This document shows, one piece after another, positions 1 through 39,422 of a stretch of DNA of 40,039 bases. Numbering within the stretch: position 1 is the first letter of the stretch; each line of letters starts with the position of its first letter. The position numbers were made by a program, and so were the translations under genes. Source of the DNA: a virus; IMG/VR virus record IMGVR_UViG_3300044956_001540, positions 1-40,039 of that record, one strand, 5' to 3'. The notes under the pieces were generated by a model that searched no databases, had not been told where the DNA came from, and saw only the letters and a program-made list of their open reading frames with translations.

Positions 1-1095
1 TCAGAACTTCGGCCGGGGAATCGCCGCCGCGGCGGCTGAATCCCTGGCCTTGTTCCTCCGAGCGTAGCGGTCCGTGGTCTTCGGGTCGAGGTGGCCCAGC
101 AGGTCGCGCACCTCCGCGAGTTCGCTGCCGCCATCCAGCCACCAGGACGCAGCGGCTGCGCGCATCTCCTTGATCGTCACCGGCTCGATGCCGGCGTCGG
201 CCACGGCTTGCCGAAACACGGGCGACCAGTTGCTGTTGCGTAGGACTGCTCCCCGCGGCGTCGTCAACACCAGGGGCGATCGGCACTGCCCCACGACATG
301 CCCCACACCGCAGTCCGTGCCCCTAGGTTCGAGATCGCGCAACATGGGGACCAGCCACTCCGGCAACGGCACCGTCCGGCGTCGCCGACCCTTGGGGTAT
401 GCCTTCATGAGCCCAGACTTCTCGGAGAACGTCTCCTGCACCGCGAGGAGGCCCGCATCTAAGTCGACGCGGTTCCAGTGCAGCCCGGCCATCTCGCCCC
501 AGCGCAGGCCGGTCGACGCGAGCATGGTGAGAATGAGCTTGTCCCGAAGCGTCGGCATCTGTTCGAGGATGGCGTTGTACTCGTCCTCCGTCAGGAACCG
601 GTCACTCGGCGGGGGTTCCGGAAGGTTGCGCAGACCCAACGCCGGGTTGTGGTCGATCTTGCCGGCGTCCACCGCTGCGGTGAGCGACACCCGCAGCAGC
701 GCCACGATGCGGTTGATGTTCGAGTTCGACTGCCCAGCGCGACGCATGGTCGCCCGCCATGCCTTGATCTCCTGCCGGTCAATGGCACCCACCGGAACCT
801 GACCCCACCGGGGCATCAGGTGGTTGTCCCGCCGCGACGCCTCCGTGCGCAGCGTGGAGTCCTCTACCGTTCGCGTCGGCCACCATTCCTCACACCAGTC
901 ACCCCAGCGGTCACGACCACCCGAGACGTCGCGGTGCTGGTGGCGGCGAGCCTTCGCCTCGACCTCACCAGCGATGCGCCTCGCCTCACCCTTATGCGTG
1001 TAGGTCTTGCGAGGCGTCGCGTTCCGCTTGGCTCCAGCCGCATCCCGGTACATCGCTCGGTAGCGTCCGCTCGCCAACTTCTCTGCCCATGCCAT
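1..1095 (-). CDS. int: Tyrosine recombinase (phage integrase)
   Basis: This enzyme would integrate the phage into the host chromosome and, with an excision factor, cut it out. The protein is 364 aa from the ATG at 1095, with an N-terminal arm-binding segment (GRYRAMYRD), a helical core-binding domain at about 65-150 and a catalytic domain at about 165-355. Catalytic residues visible are R198 (TGLRWGE), K235 in the beta hairpin, R312, H335 (LLGHLDP) and nucleophile Y344 (TDRYARR). The usual HxLRH box reads K309-E-M-R312-A, so its first histidine is a lysine; family members are known to vary here. A GTG at 1119 is also in frame. I prefer the ATG because MAWAEKL..GRYRA resembles usual family starts and a -10-like TACCGT ends 6 nt before it. 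The stop codon is at the window edge, so attP/attL is not visible. Confidence 0.96.
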   Translation of the reverse strand: MAWAEKLASGRYRAMYRDAAGAKRNATPRKTYTHKGEARRIAGEVEAKARRHQHRDVSGGRDRWGDWCEEWWPTRTVEDSTLRTEASRRDNHLMPRWGQVPVGAIDRQEIKAWRATMRRAGQSNSNINRIVALLRVSLTAAVDAGKIDHNPALGLRNLPEPPPSDRFLTEDEYNAILEQMPTLRDKLILTMLASTGLRWGEMAGLHWNRVDLDAGLLAVQETFSEKSGLMKAYPKGRRRRTVPLPEWLVPMLRDLEPRGTDCGVGHVVGQCRSPLVLTTPRGAVLRNSNWSPVFRQAVADAGIEPVTIKEMRAAAASWWLDGGSELAEVRDLLGHLDPKTTDRYARRNKARDSAAAAAIPRPKF

Positions 1096-1101
1096 GCACC
1101 T

Positions 1102-1107
1102 ACGGTA
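1102..1107 (-). promoter_or_regulatory. Candidate leaderless -10 box of int
   Basis: On the minus strand the hexamer TACCGT is followed by 6 nt and then the integrase ATG at 1095. Transcription starting about 7 nt after the -10 would begin at the start codon. No convincing -35 is seen. The same spacing recurs before other singly transcribed genes of this window. Confidence 0.4.
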
Positions 1108-2047: not shown

Positions 2048-2350
2048 ATGAGTCGCAGAAGCAACCGCTCACGATTCGAGGTCTGGATGTACGTCAAGAA
2101 CCCGGAGCGACTCCGCCGTCGCCGCAAGGATCGCGGCCTCAGTCAGGTCCAGCTCGCGTCGCTCGCCGGCTGCACGCAGCAGTACATCTCGCTGCTCGAG
2201 CAGGGCGATGACCGTGACGTATCGGAGAAGATCGCCGAGAAGATCAGCCGCTGGCTTGAAGTCGACCTGGAGGACTACTTCGACGAGCACCGCGTTGATC
2301 GCATGTGCAGTATTGCAACTGCCACGCGAGACAGTGGGATTCCCGCATGA
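2048..2350 (+). CDS. Cro-like XRE helix-turn-helix regulator
   Basis: First gene of the rightward operon, 100 aa. The XRE-type HTH is clear at about residues 17-65 (PERLRRRRKDRGLSQVQLASLAGCTQQYISLLEQG...), followed by a helix (EKIAEKISRWLEVDLEDYF) typical of small actinophage regulators. GAAGGAG at 2037-2043 serves the ATG at 2048; an ATG at 2045 is too close to it. An ATG at 2087 (MYVKNPERL) with a weaker GAGG upstream also matches known starts, so the first 13 residues are uncertain. Facing the repressor across shared operators, it is best read as the Cro-like switch partner. Confidence 0.82.
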   Translation: MSRRSNRSRFEVWMYVKNPERLRRRRKDRGLSQVQLASLAGCTQQYISLLEQGDDRDVSEKIAEKISRWLEVDLEDYFDEHRVDRMCSIATATRDSGIPA

Positions 2351-5065: not shown

Positions 5066-5268
5066 GACTCCTCCCCTTCATCTACCTGCTCATCACCCTC
5101 TTGGCCGCCAGCCTGCTCGCCACCCACCCCGGCGCACGCATCACCGTCCACGCAGGCTGGCACGCCATCGACCCCACCCGAGTGCCGGTCGTCTACTGGC
5201 TGCTCCTGCTGCCCGTCATCGCCGGGGCCACGCTCATCGCCGTCGTGCGGGTGGGGAGGGAGTCGTGA
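5062..5268 (+). CDS. Small two-helix membrane protein
   Basis: 68 aa with two hydrophobic segments, about residues 3-20 (LLPFIYLLITLLAASLLA) and 43-63 (VVYWLLLLPVIAGATLIAVV), joined by a 22-residue polar loop, so a hairpin inner-membrane protein is predicted. It lies in the early region, far from the lysis genes, so a holin role is unlikely. It overlaps the methyltransferase start (GTGA). Function unknown; membrane protection in lysogeny or early infection is only a guess. Confidence 0.7.
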   Translation: MRLLPFIYLLITLLAASLLATHPGARITVHAGWHAIDPTRVPVVYWLLLLPVIAGATLIAVVRVGRES

Positions 5269-6641
5269 GAGTCGGATCCCTCTTCAGCGGCTACGGCGGA
5301 CTGGACCTTGCAACGGAAGCGGCTTTCGACGCCACGACTGCCTGGGTCGCTGACATCGACAAGGGCGCGTGCAAGGTGCTTGCTCACCGCTTCCCTGACG
5401 CGCCCAACCTCGGTGACATCGCCGCAACTGACTGGTCCGCCGTCGAGCCTGTCGACATCATCACCGGCGGCTCACCCTGTCAAGACCTCAGTCACGCCGG
5501 CCGACGCGCTGGCATGACCGACGGCACCCGCTCAAACCTCTGGGTCGCCATGCGTGAAGCGATCGCGCAGCTGCGACCCACCTACGTCATCTGGGAGAAC
5601 GTCCGTGGAGCGTATTCAGCAGCAGCCGATAGCGCGGTGGAGCCCTGCCCGGGATGTGTGGGAGACGGATCAGGCGTGCATCTGCGGGCACTCGGACGTG
5701 TTCTCGGAGACCTTTCCGACCTCGGGTATGACTGCCAGTGGCGTGGCCTACGCGCTGCCGACGTGGGCGCCCCGCATGGACGGTTCCGCGTCTTTGTCAT
5801 CGCCCGTCTTGCCGACGCCGACGACGACGCAGCGAGGCACCGATTCACGCCTACACGAGCGGGAGGGCGCGCAGGCGAACTTGCACAACACGGTCATCGA
5901 GTTGCTGCCGACACCGCGAGCGACGGACGGCACAAAAGGGGGTCCGAATCAGCGCGGCTCGTCGGGCGACTTGATGCTGCCGAGCGCGGCCTGCTCCCTA
6001 CCCCGACCACCCGAGACGTGAAGGGCCACAACCAGCGCCGAGACGCGACGGCGCTGACAGGGGCATTGCTGCCCTCCCCGCGCACGAGCGACACGAATGG
6101 GGCCGGCCTGCATGGCGACGGTGGGCTCGACCTGCGCACTGCGGTCACCCTGCTGCCGACGCCGGTAGTCACGGACGCCAAGGGGGCACGCAACAGCACC
6201 GCGAACCGTAGCGAGACGGCGCGTCCGCACGCTGTCGGCGACACGCTCGGCGACCTCGTGTTCGACGGACGACTACTGCCGACGCCGATGGTGGGTTCGA
6301 CATCGCCCGCCGCGCACGGTCAGATCAGCGGCGACTTCCGGGCCAAGATGGACGACGCGCTCACGCGATTCGGTCAGTACGCGCCCGCTATCGCCCGCTG
6401 GGAGTCGACCACTGGCCTTCCTGCGCCGTCACCCACTGAGCCGACCGGGCGTGGTGGCGCGCACCGCCTGAGCCCCCGCTTCACCGAGTGGATGATGGGC
6501 CTCCCCGCGGGATGGATCACCGACGTGCCCGACGTGACCCGCAACGAGGCATTGAAGCTCTGCGGCAACGGCGTGGTCCAGCAGCAGGCGTTCGCGGCGA
6601 TCTGCGATGCGCTTCACGCGTGGGCGGAGGCCGCCGCATGA
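5265..6641 (+). CDS. DNA C5-cytosine methyltransferase (Dcm-like)
   Basis: 458 aa, GTG start preceded by GGGGAGGGAG. It would methylate cytosines in phage DNA, most likely to avoid host restriction. Motifs in order: I (FSGYGG, 7-12), IV (PCQD, catalytic C72), VI (ENV, 111-113), VIII (ADVGAPHGRFRVFVIA, R173 and R175) and X (CGNGVVQQQAF, about 433-443). The target recognition region at about 245-370 holds spaced LLPTP/LLPSP units, a pattern known in actinophage methylases. Between about codons 115 and 245 the third-position G/C content drops to roughly 60%, against about 75% in the first 100 codons, and the +1 frame there looks protein-like (separate entry). The frame is open throughout, so a full protein can be made. 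Confidence 0.93.
   Translation: MRVGSLFSGYGGLDLATEAAFDATTAWVADIDKGACKVLAHRFPDAPNLGDIAATDWSAVEPVDIITGGSPCQDLSHAGRRAGMTDGTRSNLWVAMREAIAQLRPTYVIWENVRGAYSAAADSAVEPCPGCVGDGSGVHLRALGRVLGDLSDLGYDCQWRGLRAADVGAPHGRFRVFVIARLADADDDAARHRFTPTRAGGRAGELAQHGHRVAADTASDGRHKRGSESARLVGRLDAAERGLLPTPTTRDVKGHNQRRDATALTGALLPSPRTSDTNGAGLHGDGGLDLRTAVTLLPTPVVTDAKGARNSTANRSETARPHAVGDTLGDLVFDGRLLPTPMVGSTSPAAHGQISGDFRAKMDDALTRFGQYAPAIARWESTTGLPAPSPTEPTGRGGAHRLSPRFTEWMMGLPAGWITDVPDVTRNEALKLCGNGVVQQQAFAAICDALHAWAEAAA
5605..6021 (+). CDS. Overlapping +1-frame ORF inside the methyltransferase gene
   Basis: A 138-aa frame begins at a GTG with GGGAG at 5593-5597 and lies wholly inside the methyltransferase gene, shifted by +1. 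By hand count about 81% of its third positions are G or C, against about 60% for the methyltransferase frame over the same DNA. Its product contains SETFPTSGMTASGVAYALP (a motif I recall from many phage methylase-associated proteins as ETWPRSGMTRNGTAY), then VLPTPTTTQRGTD and ELLPTPRATDGTKGG, units of the same LLPTP series that continues downstream in the other frame. It may be a real overprinted gene, a segment read by frameshifting, or the relic of an ancestral reading. Translation is unproven. Confidence 0.42.
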   Translation: MERIQQQPIARWSPARDVWETDQACICGHSDVFSETFPTSGMTASGVAYALPTWAPRMDGSASLSSPVLPTPTTTQRGTDSRLHEREGAQANLHNTVIELLPTPRATDGTKGGPNQRGSSGDLMLPSAACSLPRPPET

Positions 6642-13881: not shown

Positions 13882-14198
13882 GCGCCGCGGACGAGGCGCG
13901 GGAGGTGGAGGTGGTGGCGCGCTTGCAAGCCGTTCGCCTCGGCGAGGAGGGCCAGCCTGCGGCAGAGCGACGGCATCTGACGGCGATGGAGGCCCGGACG
14001 ATCTGGGCCGCTCTCGAGCCCATCCGTGCGGCTGAGCGGCAGGAGGCGGCGCGGGAGGCCCTGCTGGCGGCGGCTGAGGAGGTCGGAGCCGCGATCCGTG
14101 ACGACCATCCGAACGCAGGCTACCGAGACGGACGGGACCGAGCCGTGATGATCCTCCGCGACCGCGCTGACGGGGTGACCGGGCGGAGCGAGACGTGA
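13878..14198 (+). CDS. Small hypothetical helical protein
   Basis: 106 aa from a GTG that overlaps the previous stop. Almost wholly helical and charged, rich in Ala, Glu and Arg (LTAMEARTIWAALEPIRAAERQEAAREALLAAAEEVGAAI), with a short tail HPNAGYRDGRDRAVMILRDRA. Coiled coil possible. Unrecognised. Confidence 0.62.
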   Translation: MSAADEAREVEVVARLQAVRLGEEGQPAAERRHLTAMEARTIWAALEPIRAAERQEAAREALLAAAEEVGAAIRDDHPNAGYRDGRDRAVMILRDRADGVTGRSET

Positions 14199-14220
14199 GG
14201 CCAGCGGTGGAGGGGACGAG

Positions 14221-15063
14221 ATGGGTGACACTTGGGGTGCGGGGCGAAAGGGGTGCGGGATGAGCGAAGTGACCATCTGCCAGGCGGCGGCCTGCATGCG
14301 ACCGAGCGACGGCTGGATCCTCTGCCGAGACTGCGGACGCGTGCTCACCGAAGTGCTCACCGATATGGGCTGGATGCTCGACGAGCTCGACCTCGTCCTC
14401 ACTGGGCAGGTGCGCTACGTCAGTCAGTCGACGAGCAAGTCCAGCGACACCCCGATGCCGTTCGATGTCAAGGCCAGCGAGACCCGCGCCTACCTCACCG
14501 CAGAGATCGCTACGGCCGTCCGCCTGCTCGAGGAGGCCAACCGGTGGGAGTCGCAGGCAAAGACCGAGAAGGCCGCCGCGCTGTGGCTGCGGGACAAGGT
14601 CAGCGCCATCCGACTGCACCCAGCAGGCGGGGACATCATCGACAACCTGCTGCGGTGGTGGGCTGCCGGCCAGTGGGTCATTGACCGGCCCACTCAGCGG
14701 CAGTACCTCGGCGACTGCGAGAAGGACGTGGCCGGCATGGACTGCGGTGGACGGATCTACGGCAGGCAGGGCAAGGCCGAAGCCAGGTGCGACACCTGTG
14801 GCGGCGAGTACGAGGCTGAGGAGATGCGGGAGAAGCTCCTGAACGAACTCGACGAGCGACTTTGCACAGCCTCCGAGATCGCTCACCTCTCGACCTACCT
14901 TGGACTCGTCGCCGACCGGACAGCCGTGCGCAAGAGGATCAACCAGTGGCACACCCGCAAGCGCGTCAGCCCGCACCCGAACGACGACGGCGACGTGCGT
15001 TTCAGGTTCGGCGAGGTGTACGTGATGCTGCTCCAGGACGACGCGCTGAGGCAGTCAGCATGA
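14221..15063 (+). CDS. Zinc-ribbon / HTH DNA-binding protein
   Basis: 280 aa from the ATG with GGAGGGG 5 nt upstream; an ATG at 14260 (MSEVTICQAA) with AAAGGGG is a good alternative and removes 13 residues. N-terminal cysteine pairs (C..C and CRDCGRV), a helical middle, a CDTCGGEYEAEEM ribbon at about 210 and a C-terminal HTH-like stretch (CTASEIAHLSTYLG...RTAVRKRINQWHTRKRV) suggest a DNA-binding protein. It is the last long gene before packaging, so control of late transcription is conceivable, but no family assignment is claimed. Confidence 0.72.
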   Translation: MGDTWGAGRKGCGMSEVTICQAAACMRPSDGWILCRDCGRVLTEVLTDMGWMLDELDLVLTGQVRYVSQSTSKSSDTPMPFDVKASETRAYLTAEIATAVRLLEEANRWESQAKTEKAAALWLRDKVSAIRLHPAGGDIIDNLLRWWAAGQWVIDRPTQRQYLGDCEKDVAGMDCGGRIYGRQGKAEARCDTCGGEYEAEEMREKLLNELDERLCTASEIAHLSTYLGLVADRTAVRKRINQWHTRKRVSPHPNDDGDVRFRFGEVYVMLLQDDALRQSA

Positions 15064-24320: not shown

Positions 24321-24566
24321 ATGACGTTCCAGGACGTTCAGAAGGTGCGCGTGAAGCACCCCGTGCTCGGCGAGTTCAACGTGCGCCGCGTGTACGGCGA
24401 CCTGACCCAGATTGACAAGTCGGCCACCCGTCCCGGCGGCGAGGAAGTTCCCGCCAAGCCCAAGACCACCGTGGCGAAGAAGGCCGCGGCGACCGCCAAG
24501 AAGGCGGACCCCACCCCCAACGGCGGCGAGCCCGCCAGCGATCCCAAGGAGGGCTCGATCTCATGA
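24321..24566 (+). CDS. Small Lys/Ala-rich tail-region protein
   Basis: 81 aa with AGGAGGTCACC before the ATG. A compact start (FQDVQKVRVKHPVLGEFNVRRVYGDLTQIDKSA), then a disordered tail with TVAKKAAATAKKAD. Overlaps the major tail gene by ATGA. Its role is unknown. Confidence 0.74.
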   Translation: MTFQDVQKVRVKHPVLGEFNVRRVYGDLTQIDKSATRPGGEEVPAKPKTTVAKKAAATAKKADPTPNGGEPASDPKEGSIS

Positions 24567-25078
24567 CCGTCTCCATTCCCGAGAGCGTCCAGGCCGAGGG
24601 CAACGTGAAGGTGGTGTTCGTTCCGACGATCGCCAGCCTGTCTTCGCCGTCCGCCGCTGCGCTTAACGCCGGTACTGACATCTCTTGCTACCTGATGCCT
24701 GACTGGGACGGCGCGACCGGCACGCAGAACACCGGTGAGTCGCGTCGGTTCTGCTCCCGTCAGACGTTCCAGCGGATGGGCCGTGAGCAGTGGTCGATCG
24801 CGCCACTGTCCTACACCTACGATCCGCAGAACGCTGGCGGCGACGCGAACGCCGTGTACGACGCGCTCGCCCAGGGCAACGAGGGCTACCTCGTGTTCGG
24901 CTACGGCATCGAGCCCGCCAATGACTTCGCCAGCGGAGACGTCGTGGACATCTACCCGGTCGAGGCCGGCCTGCAGTCGAAGGCCGCTCGAGGCACGGAC
25001 GAGTTCGCGCCCCTGACTGTCATGCAGACCCTCGGCGTCATCGGCCCTCGGGTCGAGGACGCGGTCCTGGCTGCCTGA
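24563..25078 (+). CDS. Major tail (tube) protein
   Basis: 171 aa, beta-rich: VKVVFVPTIASLSSPSAAALNAGTDISCYLMPDWDGATGT, then FCSRQTFQRMGREQWSIAPLSYTYDPQ and EGYLVFGYGIEPANDFASGDVVDIYPVEAG, as in actinophage tube proteins with an Ig-free single domain. Location between the tail terminator and the frameshifted chaperones, with a strong hairpin right after it, supports the call; tube protein needs high, separate expression. Confidence 0.92.
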   Translation: MTVSIPESVQAEGNVKVVFVPTIASLSSPSAAALNAGTDISCYLMPDWDGATGTQNTGESRRFCSRQTFQRMGREQWSIAPLSYTYDPQNAGGDANAVYDALAQGNEGYLVFGYGIEPANDFASGDVVDIYPVEAGLQSKAARGTDEFAPLTVMQTLGVIGPRVEDAVLAA

Positions 25079-25150: not shown

Positions 25151-25711
25151 ATGACTAGTCACCGCCGCACAGAAACGGTCGCCCTTTACCCGGGCGAGTA
25201 CGAGCAGTCCCTGGTCACGGCCATGCAGGACGCCGAAGACGCGGCTAGGCGTGAAGCGCTTGCTGGCGGCATCCGGTTCGGCCAACGCTCACCCGCGCTG
25301 GCGGCGGCCGCGAAGTTCGACGAGCTGCGCGATTCACCCCCTGAACCGGTCGACTCGGTGACTCTCTCGCAGGTCGGCTACCTCGACTGGGACGACCTTC
25401 TGGCGCTGCACCCTCCGCGCGAGGACCAGGCCGGTGACCTGGCGCATGGCGTGGACATGAGCAGTTTCCCGCGCGCAGTGCTACACCTCTCCCTGGTTGA
25501 CCCGGATGCGTCGGGCGACCTCGCGGAACGGCTTCGCGTCGGCGAGGCGCGTCTCCGCGCCCTGAATCCGTCGCGCATTCAGTACCTCAAGCTTGAGTCG
25601 AAAGCGTGGGGCCTGAACAACGAGGACTTGAATCTCCCAAAAGAGTCGCTCGTCTCGCTGATGACCCAGAGGCGAGGCGACGACTCCGAGCAGCGCGCCG
25701 AGCAGGGGTAA
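25151..25711 (+). CDS. Tail assembly chaperone G
   Basis: 186 aa. The fold pattern (VTLSQVGYLDWDDLLALHPPREDQAGD...FPRAVLHLSLVDP...DLAERLRVGEARLRALNPSRIQYLKLESKAWGLNN) is that of siphophage G-type chaperones, which coat the tape measure during tail assembly. A slippery heptamer at 25636 near its 3' end allows a -1 shift into the following frame. The N-terminus of 80 aa is charged and helical. Confidence 0.88.
   Translation: MTSHRRTETVALYPGEYEQSLVTAMQDAEDAARREALAGGIRFGQRSPALAAAAKFDELRDSPPEPVDSVTLSQVGYLDWDDLLALHPPREDQAGDLAHGVDMSSFPRAVLHLSLVDPDASGDLAERLRVGEARLRALNPSRIQYLKLESKAWGLNNEDLNLPKESLVSLMTQRRGDDSEQRAEQG
25636..25680 (+). promoter_or_regulatory. Programmed -1 frameshift signal
   Basis: C CCA AAA (25636-25642) is in phase as X XXY YYZ with the G frame, so tRNAs can re-pair on CCC AAA after slipping back. 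Seven nt downstream, 25650-25658 pairs with 25672-25680: a 9-bp stem with one G-U pair and a 13-nt loop. Both spacer and stem size are those of known -1 signals. Confidence 0.87.
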
Positions 25712-26115
25712 GCCTCAGGACGTTTGAAGGCTGGTCACCGACCGAGGTGCACGAGCATCGCGACCAGGACGGTCGCGTCATCGGCACTACGGTCGTCCGA
25801 CGTGAACCGGAGTTCGACGACCGGCTCCGCGCCGAGTACCTGGCCGAGGTGGGCTACGACGATCGCTGCTGCAGGTCGTGCGGCAACTTCGACACGCTCG
25901 TCGAGGTCAAGGAGTCCCAGCGTCACGTGACTTGGGACGAGCACGGCGGGCGCGTCATGGACGTGCACCACTTCATCTGCCTCGCTTGCGCCTCAACGGA
26001 CATCATCAAGCGCGACTTCGAGAAGCGGTACGAGAAGGTCGAGCCGAAGCCCGGTCAGGCCAGCCCGACCGACGGCCGTCTCATCGTGGCGGCACCGCTG
26101 TCAGCCGAGGGGTGA
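25642..26115 (+). CDS. Tail assembly chaperone T-frame extension (GT product)
   Basis: Reached by -1 frameshifting: 164 residues of G are followed by 157 residues from RVARLADDPEARRRLRAARRAG, giving a GT protein of about 321 aa. The extension holds SLRTFEGWSPTEVHEHRDQDGRVIGTTVVRREPEFDDRLRAEYLAEV and then a two-pair zinc motif (CCRSCGNFD ... FICLACAST), ending in a basic helix. G and GT together act as tail-length chaperones in the lambda paradigm; the zinc part suggests a specific contact with the tape measure or tail tube. It ends 15 nt inside the convergent lipoprotein gene. Confidence 0.8.
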   Translation, partial: RVARLADDPEARRRLRAARRAGVSLRTFEGWSPTEVHEHRDQDGRVIGTTVVRREPEFDDRLRAEYLAEVGYDDRCCRSCGNFDTLVEVKESQRHVTWDEHGGRVMDVHHFICLACASTDIIKRDFEKRYEKVEPKPGQASPTDGRLIVAAPLSAEG

Positions 26116-26478
26116 GCCGACCGCTTCGCAGGCAGAGTCCAGGCTCTCAAACGCTGCCAACTCCGCCCGCCGAGCCTCCAGCATTGAATCAGTGCCGGCG
26201 GAGTCGACCGCCTGCTGATAGGCGTCGCGTAGTCGCGTCAACACCGCCCTCGCCTCTGGCTGCGAACTCTTGACCAGGTCCGCAGCGCGGTCGCGCAGTG
26301 GCGCGTAGTCCGCCTGTTCAATCGGTTGCTCCTTGCCAAGCGCCGATACCTCGACGCAAGCCTCAGCGAGCGTCATCTGCGTGGCCTTGCTGGTGGCCTC
26401 AGGCGGCGAGTTCTCTGCGGCCTGAGAACACCCGCCCAGGCACAGAAGCGCGCCGGCTAACACAAACATCAACTTCAT
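26101..26478 (-). CDS. Leftward lipoprotein (candidate superinfection exclusion)
   Basis: 125 aa, the only leftward gene in the structural region. MKLMFVLAGALLCLGGC is a lipoprotein signal: K2, hydrophobic stretch and lipobox L14-G-G-C17. The mature part is helical and polar with two cysteines (EACVEVSALG.., LDSACEAVG) that could form a disulfide outside the membrane. A TAGGCT box ends 6 nt before the ATG, implying its own leaderless promoter, so it can be expressed in the lysogen. A surface lipoprotein coded beside the tape measure recalls phage lipoproteins that block incoming phage DNA injection (such as Ltp of TP-J34), but no sequence similarity is claimed. Host fitness factor is the alternative. 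Confidence 0.8.
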   Translation of the reverse strand: MKLMFVLAGALLCLGGCSQAAENSPPEATSKATQMTLAEACVEVSALGKEQPIEQADYAPLRDRAADLVKSSQPEARAVLTRLRDAYQQAVDSAGTDSMLEARRAELAAFESLDSACEAVGSPLG

Positions 26479-26521: not shown

Positions 26522-29218
26522 ATGGCTGACCGGTCCGTGAAGGTTGTCCTGGATGGCGACGTTAGTCGCTTTAACCGCGCTCTCCTTGGCGCAGCGGCCA
26601 CGACGAAGGCGTTCAGCAAGGAGCTGGACACCTCGACGGACCGTGCGGCGAACCTGACGCAGTCGATCTTGGCGATTGGCCCCGCTCTGGTGCCGATCGC
26701 CACGGCGGCGGTGCCTGCCATCGCCGGGCTGTCGAATCAGCTTGCGATGACTGCGGGCGCTGCGGGTGTTGCTGTTCTGGCCTTTTCGGGCGTGGGCGAG
26801 GCGCTCAAGGCGGTCAACGACTTCCAGGTGGAGCCGACCACGGCCAACTTCGAGAAGTTGCAGCAGACGATGGACTCGCTTGGTCCGGCCGGGCGTGACT
26901 TCGTGGCGTACCTGCAGTCGATCCGCCCGGAACTGCAGCGACTGCAGGACGTCGCCCAGGAAGGCTTGTTCCCGGGCCTGCAGGTCGGCATCGACGAGCT
27001 GATGACGCAGGCGCCCCAGGCTGAGCGCATCGTCAGCGAGATCGCCTCCGCGCTGGGTCAACTGGGGGCCGAGGCTGGCGCCAGTCTGGCCGGGCCACGC
27101 TGGGAAGAGTTCTTCAACTTCCTCGAGGCCGAAGCCAAGCCCACGCTGCTGGACATGGGCCGCACGGTCGGCAACCTCGCCGACGGGTTCGCTCAGCTCT
27201 GGATGGCATTCGCGCCGACGTCGGCGAACTTCTCGCGCTCGTTCCTGCGCATGTCGCAGGACTTCGCATCGTGGGCGAGCACGGTCGACGAGACCCAGGG
27301 TTTCCAGGAGTTCCTGGACTACCTGGACCAGACTGGCCCGCAGGTCTGGGACACGCTCGGCGCTCTCGGCAATGCCCTGCTGCAGGTGGCCGAGGCCGCC
27401 GCACCTGTGGGCGCCGCCGTGCTGCCGATCATCGAGATCTTGGCTGACGGGATTGCGTTGATTGCCGACTCCGACGCTGGCCCTGTGCTCATCGGCATCG
27501 CTGCGGGCATCTCGGCGATCTCTCGTGCAGTCGCGCTGTACAACGTGGCGAACGGGTCGGCGCTCGCGACTCTGCTGGCGGGTACTCGCGCCGGCGGCGC
27601 GGTTCGGCAGGCCAAGGATCTCGGTGGCGCGTACCGCGAGTTCGCAACCACCGTGGACTTCGCTGCCGAGCGCGCTCGCACTGGACGTGAGCCGATCAAT
27701 CGGCTGTTCACGGCCCTCGGTGGCGCGGGCAAAGTGGCCGCTGGCATGGGTGCTCTGGCGTTCGCGGCGTCCGACCTGGACGACAGTCTCGGGCTGGCGA
27801 ACACGACGATGCTCGCCCTGGCCGGGTCTGCGTTCGGGCCGTGGGGCGCCGCAGCCGGCGCGGCCGTCGGCATCACCCGCGACCTGTCCGCTTCGACTGA
27901 CAAGCTCTCCGGGGCGCTGGACGCAGCGAACCGTGCTGCCGACGGCGGAACGATCGAGCAGCGCAACGCGGCGATGGCGGCCTTGCGCGAGGAGATCGAG
28001 AAGGCGCAACAGGGCGAGGCCGGATTCGGCCAGCGCATCGCCGAGTGGGCCGAGAACGCGCAGAGCGCAGACACGGCGACCCGCGGGCTGGCTGGGATCG
28101 TCGACAAGTTCACGACGTCCTCGGCAGAGGCGGGCAGCGAGCTCGGTGATCTGGAGAAGAAGCACGCTGCAGCCAGGCGCGAGGCGGACGACCAGAAGAT
28201 CGCTGAGGCCGGGCTTGAGAACGCTATGTCGGACGCCAGCGACTCCGCGCGTGAACAGACCGCGGCGCTGCTCGACAACATCGATGCACTGAACGCGCGA
28301 CGCGATGAGGTGCTCAAGTCGCTGGACAACGAACTCGCCTACGAGGCGGCCATCGACGAGGCCGCGAAGGCTGCGCGCGACGGGGCTGACAGCGTCGACA
28401 AGACGACCGAGGCGGGCCGCACAAACCTTGGGCTGCTTTACGACCTCGCCGAGGCGTGGAATGCACAGACGCCAGCACAGCAGAGTGCTGCAGGGGGTGC
28501 AGCCAGGGCTCGCCGGGCATTCATCCAGTCGGCTACGGGCATGGGGATGGCGCGGCGCGAGGCTGAGCGCCTCGCGGACCAGCTGCTCGACATCCCGCCG
28601 GCCGTCTCGACGCGCGTGACCCTGTACGGCGCACCGGAAGCCGGCTCGGCACTCCAGGGCGTCCTGGATCGAATCAACGCGCTCCCGTCGCAGAAGACCA
28701 TCGGCATCAAGGTGGTTGGCGGCACGACGACTCGTCAGGCGGACGGCGGTTTCTGGGAGGGGCGCGTCACGGCCCGCGCGGACGGCGGGTTCGACGAGTA
28801 CGGCCGGCCCGTTCCCCGCACCCCTCAGATCCGGGCCGGCTCTCAGGGCGTCGTGCAGTGGGGCGAGCCTGAAACCAACTGGGAGGCGTACATCTCGGGC
28901 AAGCCCGGGATGAAGGAGCGCAACGTCGGCGTGCTGATGGAGGCTGCGAGTCGTCTCGGGGTTCTCGACCGACTTAACGTGCGCCGCTACGCCGACGGTG
29001 GTCTTGCTGCGAACCCTGTCCGCGTATCTTCGCCCGGCGCCGGCGCCTCCATGCCGCCGAGCGTGACGGGGAACTGGAGTGCGTCCCTGAAGGGCGCGCA
29101 GGTGCAGATCGGCGCCGATGGTCTCGGGACCTTTGTGTCCGGCGTCGTCAAGGCAGAGCTCGACGGCGAGGCCAAGTACCAGGACCGGAACAAGCGAGCA
29201 GGACGGGGCAACCGATGA
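26522..29218 (+). CDS. Tape measure protein
   Basis: 898 aa, the longest gene, with GGGAGGTG before the ATG. It sets tail length and probably guides DNA through the membrane. The pattern is typical: a helical start (VKVVLDGDVSRFNRALLGAAATTKAFSKELDTSTDRAANL), hydrophobic stretches (AMTAGAAGVAVLAFSGVGEAL; AGPVLIGIAAGISAISRAVALY), long coiled coils (REEIEKAQQGEAGF; EKKHAAARREADDQKIAEAG) and a C-terminal Gly-rich part with ADGGFWEGRVTARADGGFDEYGRPV. No peptidase domain or lysozyme motif noticed. Confidence 0.95.
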   Translation: MADRSVKVVLDGDVSRFNRALLGAAATTKAFSKELDTSTDRAANLTQSILAIGPALVPIATAAVPAIAGLSNQLAMTAGAAGVAVLAFSGVGEALKAVNDFQVEPTTANFEKLQQTMDSLGPAGRDFVAYLQSIRPELQRLQDVAQEGLFPGLQVGIDELMTQAPQAERIVSEIASALGQLGAEAGASLAGPRWEEFFNFLEAEAKPTLLDMGRTVGNLADGFAQLWMAFAPTSANFSRSFLRMSQDFASWASTVDETQGFQEFLDYLDQTGPQVWDTLGALGNALLQVAEAAAPVGAAVLPIIEILADGIALIADSDAGPVLIGIAAGISAISRAVALYNVANGSALATLLAGTRAGGAVRQAKDLGGAYREFATTVDFAAERARTGREPINRLFTALGGAGKVAAGMGALAFAASDLDDSLGLANTTMLALAGSAFGPWGAAAGAAVGITRDLSASTDKLSGALDAANRAADGGTIEQRNAAMAALREEIEKAQQGEAGFGQRIAEWAENAQSADTATRGLAGIVDKFTTSSAEAGSELGDLEKKHAAARREADDQKIAEAGLENAMSDASDSAREQTAALLDNIDALNARRDEVLKSLDNELAYEAAIDEAAKAARDGADSVDKTTEAGRTNLGLLYDLAEAWNAQTPAQQSAAGGAARARRAFIQSATGMGMARREAERLADQLLDIPPAVSTRVTLYGAPEAGSALQGVLDRINALPSQKTIGIKVVGGTTTRQADGGFWEGRVTARADGGFDEYGRPVPRTPQIRAGSQGVVQWGEPETNWEAYISGKPGMKERNVGVLMEAASRLGVLDRLNVRRYADGGLAANPVRVSSPGAGASMPPSVTGNWSASLKGAQVQIGADGLGTFVSGVVKAELDGEAKYQDRNKRAGRGNR

Positions 29219-31011
29219 CCACGAACCAGCTCACGGTCGTCTCCGATGCGCAGGTGTGGTCGGGCAATGCTGACAAGAACTACGGCGGCCTTGGGAAGAT
29301 GGGCGTCAACACGGGCGATACTCCCCGCGCGGCGTACCTGTTCTTCGGGCGGCCGTTCCCGAACGGGGTCACGGTGCTGTCGGCGAAGCTGCGTCTGTAT
29401 CAGCAGGGGGCAGCGACGGGCGGCAGTCGGACGCTCGCGGTGCAGCGGGTCACGAAGGCGTGGTCCGAGTCCGGGCTGACGTGGGAGAACCGTCCACTCG
29501 GCACGGGGGCGACTGCGACTCGCACGCAGGGTGACAGCGCCACCGATGGTCGCGTGTGGGAGTTCGACGTTCAGGCGCTCATGCAGCAAGTCGCCGACGG
29601 CGCGTCGTTCTACGGCGTGCGGGTGACGTCGAACCTGTCGGCGCCAATCTGGTTCTACTCCAAGAACGCGAACATCGGCCAGTACATGGCCTCGCTCGAG
29701 GTGGAGTGGTCTGAGGCTCCTGACGCGCCGACAGATTGCTCTCCGACGGCTGAGCAGGCGGTGAGTATCGTCCGGCCGACGTTCCGCATGGACTACACGG
29801 ACCCGTCTGGCGAGGACGGCCTGCAGGCGGTGCAGGTGCAGGTGTCGACGTCGAGCACGTTCGGCACGCTGCAGCAGGACTCGGATGCCTTCCCGACGGA
29901 TCTGCCTGAGTGGACGGCCACGACTGACATCCCGACGTCGACCGGCGTGTACTACTGGCGCGGTCGGACGCAGGATGCTGCGGGCAACTGGTCTCCGTTC
30001 TCGGCGCCGCAGCCGTTTCGCCGCACGTCCAAGGGTGTGCTGACGTTGACGAACCCGACGGCGACGGTCTACACGCCGACGCCGTCGTGGTCGTGGACGT
30101 GGGCGCCGGCGGTTGCTGGTGACACGCAGCGTGCGTTCCAGGTCTGGATCATGGACCCGGCGGACGTCACGCAGGTGCTGTGGACGTCGAACAAGATCAC
30201 CTCGACCACGACGTCGTACACGATGCCTGACCGGGACCGGCTGCTGCTGACTCCCGGCCAGTCGTACACGACGGTGCTGCGGGTGTGGGGCGAGGTTGCG
30301 CGGGCGGCGACACCGAATGACCCGGTGTACGTGGAGGCGTCGAGGACGTTCGGGTTTGGCACGACGGGCGCGTCGAACGTCACCGGCCTGGACGTCAAGG
30401 ACGGCAGTCCGTTCGCGCGTCTGGAATGGACGACAAGCTCGGCGCCGGACCAGTTCGTCATCATCCGCAACGGCAAGACGGTCGCGGTGGAGGACGCTGA
30501 CGACCTGCGGGTGAGTGGCACGTTCTACCGCTACGAGGACCGTGGCGCCCGGCCCAAGCAGCAGCACACGTGGGGCGTGGCGACAAAGAGCGGCGCCTCG
30601 ACCGCGAACCCGGTCACGAAGCAGGGCGTGCTGGAGGTCGAGGGCCTCTGGATCTACGGGCCGAAGACTGGTGACCTCGCGGTGCAGATGTGGGGCCAGG
30701 ACGGCGACCCTGACCCGATGTCATTCACGCCCGACGAGGATGTGGCGATCTTCGCCGGCGCAGGCTCCACTCGCGCCGTAATGATCGCGACGGGCTCCGG
30801 CTCTCGCCCAAATCGTCGAAGCGTGAAGGCCGCGATCCTCGCGACGGATCTGCCCGCCTGGCGGCAACTCACAGCGCGTCGAGCGGTGACCCTCGGGGCC
30901 ATGCTCATCACGACGGTGATTGAGGTTCAGCTCTACAACGTCGTCACTGGCGACAGGGCCGAGTTTGACGACCTTGTCCCAGTCGAGTTCGACATGATCG
31001 TGGTCGGCTGA
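29215..31011 (+). CDS. Distal tail / minor tail protein with DNRLRE-like domain
   Basis: 598 aa. Residues about 1-165 (VVSDAQVWSGNADKNYGGLGKMGV..RAAYLFFGRPFPNGVTVLSAKLRLYQQ...WENRPL) resemble the DNRLRE beta-sandwich found in surface carbohydrate-binding proteins. Residues 170-470 look like two fibronectin-type repeats (YYWRGRTQDAAGNWSPFS). The C-terminal third (LEVEGLWIYGPKTGDLAVQMWG ... TTVIEVQLYNVVTGD) resembles distal-tail-like barrel sequence. ATGA overlap with the tape measure gene. It likely sits at the tail tip and may bind host glycans. Confidence 0.82.
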   Translation: MTTNQLTVVSDAQVWSGNADKNYGGLGKMGVNTGDTPRAAYLFFGRPFPNGVTVLSAKLRLYQQGAATGGSRTLAVQRVTKAWSESGLTWENRPLGTGATATRTQGDSATDGRVWEFDVQALMQQVADGASFYGVRVTSNLSAPIWFYSKNANIGQYMASLEVEWSEAPDAPTDCSPTAEQAVSIVRPTFRMDYTDPSGEDGLQAVQVQVSTSSTFGTLQQDSDAFPTDLPEWTATTDIPTSTGVYYWRGRTQDAAGNWSPFSAPQPFRRTSKGVLTLTNPTATVYTPTPSWSWTWAPAVAGDTQRAFQVWIMDPADVTQVLWTSNKITSTTTSYTMPDRDRLLLTPGQSYTTVLRVWGEVARAATPNDPVYVEASRTFGFGTTGASNVTGLDVKDGSPFARLEWTTSSAPDQFVIIRNGKTVAVEDADDLRVSGTFYRYEDRGARPKQQHTWGVATKSGASTANPVTKQGVLEVEGLWIYGPKTGDLAVQMWGQDGDPDPMSFTPDEDVAIFAGAGSTRAVMIATGSGSRPNRRSVKAAILATDLPAWRQLTARRAVTLGAMLITTVIEVQLYNVVTGDRAEFDDLVPVEFDMIVVG

Positions 31012-37637: not shown

Positions 37638-39422
37638 ATGGACATCCTGACCCTCGCAGCAGCCAAGGCGGCCGGCAAGCAGGCATTCTCCGGACAGCCC
37701 GGTGCACTCCTCACCAAGCTCGGCATCGGCAGGGAATCTGCCGCCCTGCAGGTGCTCGGCGACTCCACCGGCAACGAGCCCACCGAATGGGTCTACCTAC
37801 TCGCCCAGTGGCTCGGCACGCAGTACCCCCGGTACGCCGTGCGTCACCGCCTGTGGAACGACTCCACCCAGACCTACGACGCCCCGACGGTCGTCTCGGC
37901 AGGCACCGACATTCCGCCTCCGACGGTCGCGGATACCTACGACCGAGCCGACGGTCAGGTCACCACGGACTCCCTGACCTCCTCGGGAGCGGCGTACCTG
38001 ATCGTGGGCGGCGGCACCCTGTCCGTCACCAGCAACAAGCTCGTGCCGTCCCAGTCCGGCGCCTACTTCCTCATCGCCGCCCCGCGCGCCGACTACACGA
38101 TGACCGTCGACCACACGTTCGTCACCGGCACCAACCCGCGATTCTTCATCCGGCACGCCGACGACGCGAACCACCTGTTCGTCGAGATCGGACTCTCGTC
38201 GATGACGCTCTACAAGCGCCAGGGGGGCACCCTCACCTCCCTGGGGGCAGCCAGCAGCCTCGGCATCACCAACGGGCAGGTCAAGACCGTCACGATCACG
38301 ACGAGCGCGCAGACCGTCACGATCACCGTCAACGGCGTCACCCTCACATACTCGCTCAGCACCGTCGAGCAACAGGTCTTCAGGTCGCCGACGACGGTCG
38401 GCTTCTATGCCAACGGCACCGTCGCCGGCACGTCAATCGACTCCCTCAACATCGTCCCGGGCGGCCTGTTCCTCGACATCTGGAACGCGTCCATGCCCGG
38501 CGCCACCGCGTCCTACTCGTACACCCGTTTCGCTCAGCAGCTCGTCGTCGCCGCCGAGATGACGATCACCAACTACGGGCACAACCAGACGTACCAGGAC
38601 ATTCGACCCGAGCTCCTCGCCCTCGCCCGGGGCGTCCTGAACTACAACCCCCGCACGCAGCTCGCGCTCACGGCACAGAACCCTCGAGCAGCCACCAACG
38701 GGAAGTTCACCGACGGCATCGTCAAGAACCAAGCCATCGCATCCCTCGCGGCGACCGAGGGGTACGGGCTCATCGACGCCGGCTCGGCCTTTCTTGCGAA
38801 CCCGAACTACGCGGCGGACTGGCTGCTGTCCGATGGGCTGCACCCCAACGCCGCCGGGTCGGTCGTGTGGTCGCGGGCGGCCCAGGACTTCATGCGCCGC
38901 ACGCGCACGCAGCCGTCGACGGTGCAGCGCCCGTCCCGCATCTTCGTCCCGGCGTCAGCGTTCACGCCCACTGAGGGCGCGCCGAGTCTCGGCCTACTCG
39001 CCGACGTGATCGGCATGGCGTTCGACCCGGCGACGCAGGAGACGGCGCACACCGTCGTCGACATCCCCTCGTACTGGCAGTCGTTCAACCTGACCGTCAT
39101 CGCTACGACGCCGGCCAACTCTGGGCTCACGGGCTCGACAAACGGCATCGTCTGGCAGATCCAGATCGGCAACCTCGGGGTGGACATCACCGCGACCAAC
39201 GCCGCGCCCTCGACCGTGGTCCCGGCTCAGGCCGCCACACAGGGGACTATGGCGGTCAACAACGCCGGGGCGCCCAGCGTCTACGCCCGACAGATCGTGT
39301 CTCGCGCCTCGGTGACCGGCCGGCCCATGCCCATGCGAGTGCGACGACTCGCAGCAGACGGAGCGGATACCTACGCGCAAGATGCCTCGCTCATCGGTGT
39401 CGTGATCGAGCGCGCGGCGTAG
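37638..39422 (+). CDS. Tail protein with SGNH hydrolase split by a lectin-like insert
   Basis: 594 aa. SGNH hydrolase blocks: I GDST (S43), III YGHN (N316) and V SDGLHPN (D399, H402), giving a Ser-Asp-His triad. Between I and III lies an insert of about 180 residues (92-275, TYDRADGQVTTDSL...RFFIRHADDANHLFVEIG...VTITVNGVTLTYSL) that looks like a concanavalin/LamG-type beta-sandwich. The C-terminal 160 residues are another beta domain. It may deacylate host surface sugars during adsorption. The start has GGAG at a long spacing. Confidence 0.88.
   Translation: MDILTLAAAKAAGKQAFSGQPGALLTKLGIGRESAALQVLGDSTGNEPTEWVYLLAQWLGTQYPRYAVRHRLWNDSTQTYDAPTVVSAGTDIPPPTVADTYDRADGQVTTDSLTSSGAAYLIVGGGTLSVTSNKLVPSQSGAYFLIAAPRADYTMTVDHTFVTGTNPRFFIRHADDANHLFVEIGLSSMTLYKRQGGTLTSLGAASSLGITNGQVKTVTITTSAQTVTITVNGVTLTYSLSTVEQQVFRSPTTVGFYANGTVAGTSIDSLNIVPGGLFLDIWNASMPGATASYSYTRFAQQLVVAAEMTITNYGHNQTYQDIRPELLALARGVLNYNPRTQLALTAQNPRAATNGKFTDGIVKNQAIASLAATEGYGLIDAGSAFLANPNYAADWLLSDGLHPNAAGSVVWSRAAQDFMRRTRTQPSTVQRPSRIFVPASAFTPTEGAPSLGLLADVIGMAFDPATQETAHTVVDIPSYWQSFNLTVIATTPANSGLTGSTNGIVWQIQIGNLGVDITATNAAPSTVVPAQAATQGTMAVNNAGAPSVYARQIVSRASVTGRPMPMRVRRLAADGADTYAQDASLIGVVIERAA

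What the first reader, a model, noticed from the sequence alone, without database searches (positions are those of the whole stretch)
26101..26478. Leftward lipoprotein gene next to the tape measure: possible superinfection exclusion
A single gene against the direction of the late operon has its own -10-like box and encodes a small secreted lipoprotein (lipobox LGGC). Lysogen-expressed surface lipoproteins in some phages block DNA entry of related phages by acting on the tape measure protein. Its place 43 nt from the tape measure start would keep the pair co-inherited.
Basis: partly seen in the sequence, partly recalled or inferred. Interest (0 to 1): 0.65.

Follow-up and report, generated by a model that had tools for sequence, protein, structure and literature searches.

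The report
Prophage lipoprotein gene beside tape measure
A temperate phage of a high-GC bacterium carries a small backward-facing gene, with its own promoter, for a surface lipoprotein just before its tail tape-measure gene; many related phages keep a different small membrane protein in the same spot, where E. coli phage HK97 keeps a proven gene for shutting out rival phages, so this is probably a prophage's lock against superinfection.

Summary
Window 26101-26478 (-) is a real 125-codon lipoprotein gene, the only leftward gene in the late operon. A relative (L004; MTP 92%, TMP 64-68% identical) keeps it in the same place at 41% identity, with lipobox, two mature cysteines and the TAGGCT-N6-ATG start region conserved. 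Relatives without it (L007/L008, L014) have chaperone and tape measure 2-5 nt apart instead of about 406.

It generalises. Across 71 non-redundant related loci, leftward ORFs with a -10 box 6-7 nt before the start codon (leaderless-mRNA layout) concentrate in this junction: 14 of 35, about 0.5 expected. Twelve of the 14 encode lipoproteins or small membrane proteins of several unrelated families. Envelope-type occupants occur only with two TMP families (17/23 versus 0/47). All 11 whole-record carriers have a tyrosine integrase. HK97 gp15, a proven superinfection-exclusion membrane protein linked genetically to the tail tube/TMP genes, lies in the same junction, though rightward.

Best reading: a prophage-expressed envelope moron that most likely blocks DNA entry of related phages. 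Gene, export signal and promoter layout are well supported; lysogenic expression, exclusion and a TMP target are inferred. No known protein family was matched.

The parts
26101..26478 (-). lipoprotein gene, 125 aa; predicted mature domain is an acidic four-helix bundle with Cys41 and Cys117
   Evidence: translation, gene caller, homologue L004:4576-4959, AlphaFold model pLDDT 73
26431..26478 (-). signal peptide, residues 1-16; lipobox LGGC, lipidated Cys17 codon 26428-26430
   Evidence: sequence; conserved in L004
26485..26490 (-). TAGGCT -10 box, 6 nt before the ATG (leaderless layout)
   Evidence: sequence; identical TAGGCTGCGGCGATG in L004; layout 14/19 slot genes versus 0.66 expected
25151..25711 (+). 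tail assembly chaperone G
   Evidence: gene caller, synteny with annotated phages
25636..25642 (+). CCCAAAA slippery heptamer for a -1 frameshift
   Evidence: in frame with G; T frame open to 26115
25606..26115 (+). chaperone T frame; last 15 nt overlap the lipoprotein gene's 3' end
   Evidence: ORF list; matches annotated Arthrobacter phage tail assembly chaperones
26522..29218 (+). tape measure protein, 898 aa
   Evidence: PHROG tape measure families, best 1.6e-13
24563..25078 (+). major tail protein
   Evidence: PF25595, 3.2e-36
1..1095 (-). tyrosine integrase (temperate lifestyle); start also has TACCGT-N6-ATG
   Evidence: PF00589 1.8e-23; start region
2087..2350 (+). Cro/CI-type helix-turn-helix regulator
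   Evidence: PF01381 1.6e-11

Best explanation
The gene is a prophage-expressed envelope 'moron' inserted between the frameshifted tail assembly chaperone and the tape measure gene of a temperate actinophage-like siphovirus. It is transcribed leftward from its own host-type -10 promoter as a leaderless mRNA, independently of the late operon. The protein is exported, lipidated at Cys17, and displays an acidic, probably disulfide-tied four-helix domain outside the cytoplasmic membrane. Most likely it stops related phages from delivering DNA by interfering with the tape measure/DNA channel at the membrane, as HK97 gp15 and TP-J34 Ltp do; its place beside the TMP keeps the exclusion gene with the tail module to which its specificity is matched. 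Shown: gene, lipobox, conservation, insertion, promoter layout, slot recurrence, TMP-family association. Inferred: lysogenic expression, exclusion, TMP as target.
For: Frame-specific conservation with lipobox and cysteines. Insertion: gap 406-410 nt with, 2-5 nt without the gene. Leaderless layout in 14/19 slot genes versus 0.66 expected, none at five other offset pairs, 5/1095 rightward starts; blind scan 14 of 35 leftward hits in 1.5% of sequence, 12/14 exported versus 3.2% of small rightward genes. Leftward genes 19 at this junction in 69 loci versus 6 at 492 other junctions. Envelope occupants only with two TMP families. Integrase in 11/11 whole-record carriers. HK97 gp15, a proven exclusion protein linked to the tail tube/TMP genes, lies in the same junction. 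Lipoprotein and TMP C-terminus diverge alike between window and L004.
Against: No expression or infection data. No sequence or fold relation to gp15, Ltp or any defence family. The Ltp-style charge match is weak: TMP C-terminus only mildly basic. TMP-family association is not corrected for phylogeny. Two slot genes (L033, L043) are not exported. The -10 box has no -35. Six neighbouring-group late junctions elsewhere also hold leftward genes.
Confidence: 0.5

Rival explanations
1. Receptor masking or other surface lysogenic conversion: the lipoprotein is made by the prophage but acts at adsorption or on host surface properties, not on the tape measure; the site next to the TMP is only a tolerated insertion point.
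For: Surface lipoproteins can block receptors (T5 Llp, own knowledge; PMC9586334). Leftward leaderless lipoproteins also occur away from the TMP, downstream of tail genes (L104, L136).
Against: Enrichment at the chaperone-TMP junction over other late junctions and restriction to two TMP families; most slot occupants are 2-TM proteins with little outside the membrane.
Confidence: 0.25
2. A cargo gene with no role in phage competition: it gives the lysogen some other benefit, or is a near-neutral passenger, and the junction simply tolerates insertions.
For: No family match; the protein diverges faster than its neighbours (41% versus 63-92%); two slot occupants are cytoplasmic (L033, L043).
Against: Reading frame under protein-level constraint; strong bias of occupants to the envelope and to certain TMPs.
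Confidence: 0.15
3. A factor used in the lytic cycle or virion assembly that happens to be encoded backwards, for example a membrane partner for the phage's own tail or lysis.
For: Position among tail assembly genes.
Against: Opposite strand, own leaderless host-type promoter; absent without replacement in close relatives.
Confidence: 0.08
4. The ORF is spurious: a chance open frame in GC-rich DNA.
For: The window has 272 ORFs of 60 aa or more; no database family hit.
Against: Frame-specific conservation in L004, gene-caller score 18, an otherwise uncovered 406-nt gap, and the slot pattern.
Confidence: 0.01

Closest known systems
Escherichia phage HK97 gp15 (superinfection-exclusion moron)
   Same: Small envelope protein encoded between the frameshifted chaperone and the TMP of a temperate siphophage; published to block DNA injection, with escape by exchange of tail tube and TMP genes (PMC10883804).
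   Different: gp15 is rightward, 62 aa with one TM (PF13974 YebO-like), Gram-negative host; the window protein is leftward, lipidated and unrelated in sequence.
Streptococcus phage TP-J34 Ltp (exclusion lipoprotein)
   Same: Prophage-encoded acidic helical lipoprotein outside the membrane; Ltp acts on the TMP of incoming phages (PMC3952083).
   Different: ltp lies in the lysogeny module, not beside the TMP; no sequence or fold match found; weaker charge complementarity here.
2-TM slot proteins of Arthrobacter phages (Anekin gp17, Bridgette gp17, Auxilium gp18 and others)
   Same: Same junction, same leftward strand, own promoter, temperate phages.
   Different: Two-TM proteins, not lipoproteins; function unknown; no sequence relation.
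Corndog gene 53 (cluster O mycobacteriophages)
   Same: Leftward gene inside the structural operon with a predicted leaderless SigA promoter (PMC4351075).
   Different: Encodes a putative DNA-binding protein.

Membership tests
Moron (self-contained gene inserted between late genes) | Present in some and cleanly absent from other close relatives | tested here: met
   Gap 406/410 nt with the gene (window, L004), 5 and 2 nt without (L007, L014)
Moron (self-contained gene inserted between late genes) | Own promoter | tested here: met
   Conserved TAGGCT-N6-ATG; layout strongly enriched in slot genes; sequence evidence only
Moron (self-contained gene inserted between late genes) | Own terminator | tested here: not met
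   No terminator-like site downstream of the gene near 26101; the only hit, at 25179-25197 (-), is no better than shuffles. Many published morons have one; not required by all definitions
Bacterial lipoprotein | Signal peptide with lipobox and Cys | tested here: met
   LGGC at residues 14-17, conserved position in L004
Bacterial lipoprotein | Lipidation and surface location | not testable with these tools
   Needs labelling or fractionation
HK97 gp15-like exclusion protein | Chaperone-TMP junction | tested here: met
HK97 gp15-like exclusion protein | Sequence family (YebO/phrog_5031) | tested here: not met
   gp15 matches PF13974 and phrog_5031; window protein matches neither
HK97 gp15-like exclusion protein | Same direction as the late operon | tested here: not met
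   Window gene leftward, gp15 rightward
Ltp-type exclusion lipoprotein | Ltp sequence or fold | tested here: not met
   No PDB sequence hit at E<=1; no PDB fold hit at E<=0.001; model only moderate confidence
Superinfection-exclusion protein (functional class) | Expressed in the lysogen and blocks infection by related phages | not testable with these tools
   Needs RNA-seq and infection assays

The most novel reading that the evidence does not exclude
In temperate actinophages the chaperone-tape measure junction is a dedicated exclusion locus: interchangeable, unrelated envelope proteins, each driven leftward by its own (mostly leaderless) promoter, go with particular tape measure families, so the slot encodes the prophage's tail-specific lock on DNA entry. 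The window lipoprotein would be the founder of a new exclusion-lipoprotein family.
Probability: 0.4. Interest if true: 0.8.

Novelty: new variant of a known kind. Interest (0 to 1): 0.62.

Why it matters
Few exclusion systems are known in actinophages, and those that act through the tape measure (HK97 gp15, TP-J34 Ltp) were found one at a time. A fixed genomic address with a recognisable promoter layout gives a simple rule for finding candidates in sequenced prophages, including unannotated ones (Isolde, L144:3980-4159), and pairs each candidate with its likely target. Cluster AY and FF Arthrobacter phages are reported to form lysogens (PMC11993905, PMC12628072), so the idea can be tested directly.

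Tried and rejected
Spurious ORF: rejected. Known family: no Pfam, PHROG or PDB sequence relation, and no meaningful PADLOC hit; the phrog_1119 'Cor superinfection exclusion' line (E=0.41, residues 1-33) covers mainly the signal peptide. Fold search: nothing at E<=0.001; top hits are generic helical bundles (FAK FAT domain) and, in BFVD, a Gordonia phage lipoprotein at E=0.86. Homology to the Gulosibacter slot lipoprotein (L040): similar two-cysteine layout, but BLASTP not significant. Acidic lipoprotein versus basic TMP C-terminus as in Ltp: only weak. Sigma-70 consensus scan: none, for want of a -35, hence the -10/start-offset test. MTP profile in genome contigs gave no loci; the MCP profile did. 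Closer relatives of the lipoprotein: none in 50,697 phage records; only an identical IMG/VR contig and L004 among viral contigs. The list of 19 slot genes includes two (L068, L119) noticed because they are exported, so the export statistic quoted is that of the motif-defined set (12/14), not 17/19.

Full report
WHAT IS THERE. Window 26101-26478 (-) encodes MKLMFVLAGALLCLGGCSQAAENSPPEATSKATQMTLAEACVEV...LDSACEAVGSPLG, 125 aa. The signal peptide is short, the lipobox is LGGC and the residue to be lipidated is Cys17. Gene order: major tail protein 24563-25078 (PF25595), chaperone G 25151-25711, CCCAAAA slippery heptamer 25636-25642 in frame for a -1 shift, chaperone T to 26115, the leftward gene, tape measure protein (TMP) 26522-29218 (PHROG tape measure families). 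The phage is temperate: tyrosine integrase 1-1095 (PF00589, 1.8e-23) and a Cro/CI-type HTH gene 2087-2350. The window is a 40,039-base IMG/VR virus record. The host is unknown, but most of its closest phage proteins are from Arthrobacter, Brevibacterium, Rothia and other actinophages.

IT IS A REAL GENE. No record of the phage collection has a homologue. One IMG/VR contig is identical over the stretch compared (L001). A second, 3300044956_001544 (L004), is related: MTP 92%, chaperone 63-69%, TMP 64-68% identical. It carries the same leftward gene at the same place at 41% identity. Only this frame is conserved: BLOSUM score 203 against at most 87 for the other five frames, with DNA identity 57%. 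The lipobox position, two mature cysteines and the start region TAGGCTGCGGCGATG are conserved. In other relatives (L007/L008, MTP 59%; L014) the gene is absent and the TMP starts 2-5 nt after the chaperone stop, against 406 and 410 nt with the gene. The gene is therefore an insertion, a moron.

THE JUNCTION IS A SLOT. A major-capsid profile brought in 113 loci from bacterial genomes and viral contigs. With loci already fetched, 93 reach the TMP start, 77 of them non-redundant. By one rule (score at least 12, mostly uncovered by rightward genes) there are 19 leftward genes at the chaperone-TMP junction in 69 loci, against 6 at 492 other late junctions (Fisher p about 5e-14). The occupants include the window/L004 lipoprotein, an unrelated lipoprotein in L010/L016, another in a Gulosibacter genome (L040, with a second leftward membrane protein beside it), and many 2-TM proteins. 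The same is annotated, as hypothetical or membrane protein, in Arthrobacter phages Anekin, Bridgette, Hum25, Auxilium, Seahorse, Constance and Hestia and Microbacterium phage Footloose. In Isolde the junction is empty in the record but holds an unannotated 2-TM gene.

THE START LAYOUT. For 19 slot genes I asked whether a TANNNT box lies at a given distance before any in-frame start. At 6-7 nt it does in 14 of 19, against 0.66 expected from shuffles. At offsets 2-3, 4-5, 8-9, 10-11 and 12-13 it does in none, and at 14-15 in two. Among 1095 rightward gene starts in the same loci, 5 have it. A scan blind to export and gene calls, over 694 kb per strand in 71 loci, found 35 leftward ORFs of at least 45 aa with this layout. 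Fourteen are in the slot, which is about 1.5% of the sequence (p about 7e-17). Twelve of those 14 are exported, against 3.2% of small rightward genes under the same rule. A -10 box ending 6-7 nt before the start codon places the transcription start on the start codon, i.e. a leaderless mRNA, common in actinobacteria (own knowledge; the same reasoning is used for Corndog promoters in PMC4351075). The window's own integrase start reads TACCGT-N6-ATG. Some Arthrobacter slots instead have TATGAT about 28-32 nt upstream and a Shine-Dalgarno-like run, so leaderless is the common form, not the only one.

LINK TO THE TAPE MEASURE. Grouping TMPs by BLASTP, the 17 envelope-type occupants fall in two families (14 of 18 and 3 of 5 members); none occurs with the other 47 TMPs (Fisher p about 2e-11, computed with 46). 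The two non-envelope occupants (L033, L043) sit with another TMP family. This is not corrected for phylogeny and may partly be shared descent of the tail module; but unrelated protein types recur within the same TMP families, which descent of one gene does not explain. Between the window and L004 the TMP N-terminal 300 residues are 84-87% identical and the last 200 are 37-41%, similar to the lipoprotein's 41%.

LIFESTYLE. Every whole-record carrier tested has a tyrosine integrase: the window, the L004 contig, Anekin, Bridgette, Footloose, Hum25, Auxilium, Isolde, Seahorse, Constance, Hestia. L037, L039 and L040 come from bacterial genomes. Slot-lacking records are mixed (7 of 13 have an integrase, some being fragments); AGM1, without an integrase hit, lacks the gene. 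Cluster AY and FF Arthrobacter phages are reported to form lysogens (PMC11993905, PMC12628072).

MECHANISM. HK97 gp15 is annotated as a moron product between the frameshifted chaperone and the TMP. Published work names it a superinfection-exclusion protein of the inner membrane; HK97 hybrids with HK022 tail tube and TMP genes escape it, and TP-J34 TMP changes overcome the lipoprotein Ltp (PMC10883804). Ltp's acidic repeats are proposed to bind the basic TMP C-terminus (PMC3952083). The window protein's mature part is acidic (-8; L004 -11; L040 -21), but the TMP C-terminus is only mildly basic, so I do not claim the same interface. AlphaFold (two sequences, mean pLDDT 73, pTM 0.65; other models 48-59) gives four helices with Cys41 in the first and Cys117 in the last; a disulfide between them is inference. 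No solved or viral structure matches significantly. I rate: real leftward gene 0.97; own promoter, leaderless 0.88; expressed in the lysogen 0.75; superinfection exclusion 0.5; TMP as the target 0.35.

NOVELTY. Morons, exclusion lipoproteins, and an exclusion gene at this junction (HK97 gp15) are known; a leftward leaderless gene in an actinophage structural operon is known (Corndog 53). The lipoprotein family is new. I found no report of recurrent leftward, self-promoted envelope genes at this junction in the papers searched, but most subscription papers are not in that library. Hence 'new variant of a known kind'.

Noticed in passing
L144:3980-4159 (-), Arthrobacter phage Isolde: An unannotated 59-codon leftward 2-TM gene with TACAAT-N6-ATG fills the chaperone-TMP gap that the record leaves empty.
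   Followed up: yes
L104:17859-18233 (-) and L136:13341-13688 (-): Leftward lipoprotein genes with the same -10/start layout lie downstream of the TMP rather than beside it; a second home for such genes.
   Followed up: partly
L040:13510-13941 and 14004-14411 (-), Gulosibacter genome: Two leftward envelope genes, a TM protein (phrog_13160) and a two-cysteine lipoprotein, both in the chaperone-TMP gap.
   Followed up: partly
L021, upstream of 4996 (-), Microbacterium phage Footloose: An inverted repeat TTACCGCC-N14-GGCGGTAA lies over the slot promoter (a possible operator), and an HNH gene separates slot and TMP.
   Followed up: no
L019, L020, L143, L145, upstream of the slot genes: Arthrobacter slots share a CTATTGA(G/C)TT-like element just upstream of the -10 box at non-standard spacing; possibly a regulator site.
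   Followed up: no
window 1096-1107 (-): The integrase start also shows a -10 box 6 nt before the ATG (TACCGT-N6-ATG), like the lipoprotein gene.
   Followed up: partly
window 38168-38251 (-): ARAGORN tRNA-Tyr call lies antisense inside a well-scored rightward gene (37638-39422); probably spurious, or an attachment-site remnant.
   Followed up: no
window 5265-6641 and 29215-31011 (+): A C5 cytosine methyltransferase (PF00145), and a post-TMP tail protein with CBM96 and Rha78A-like Ig domains.
   Followed up: no
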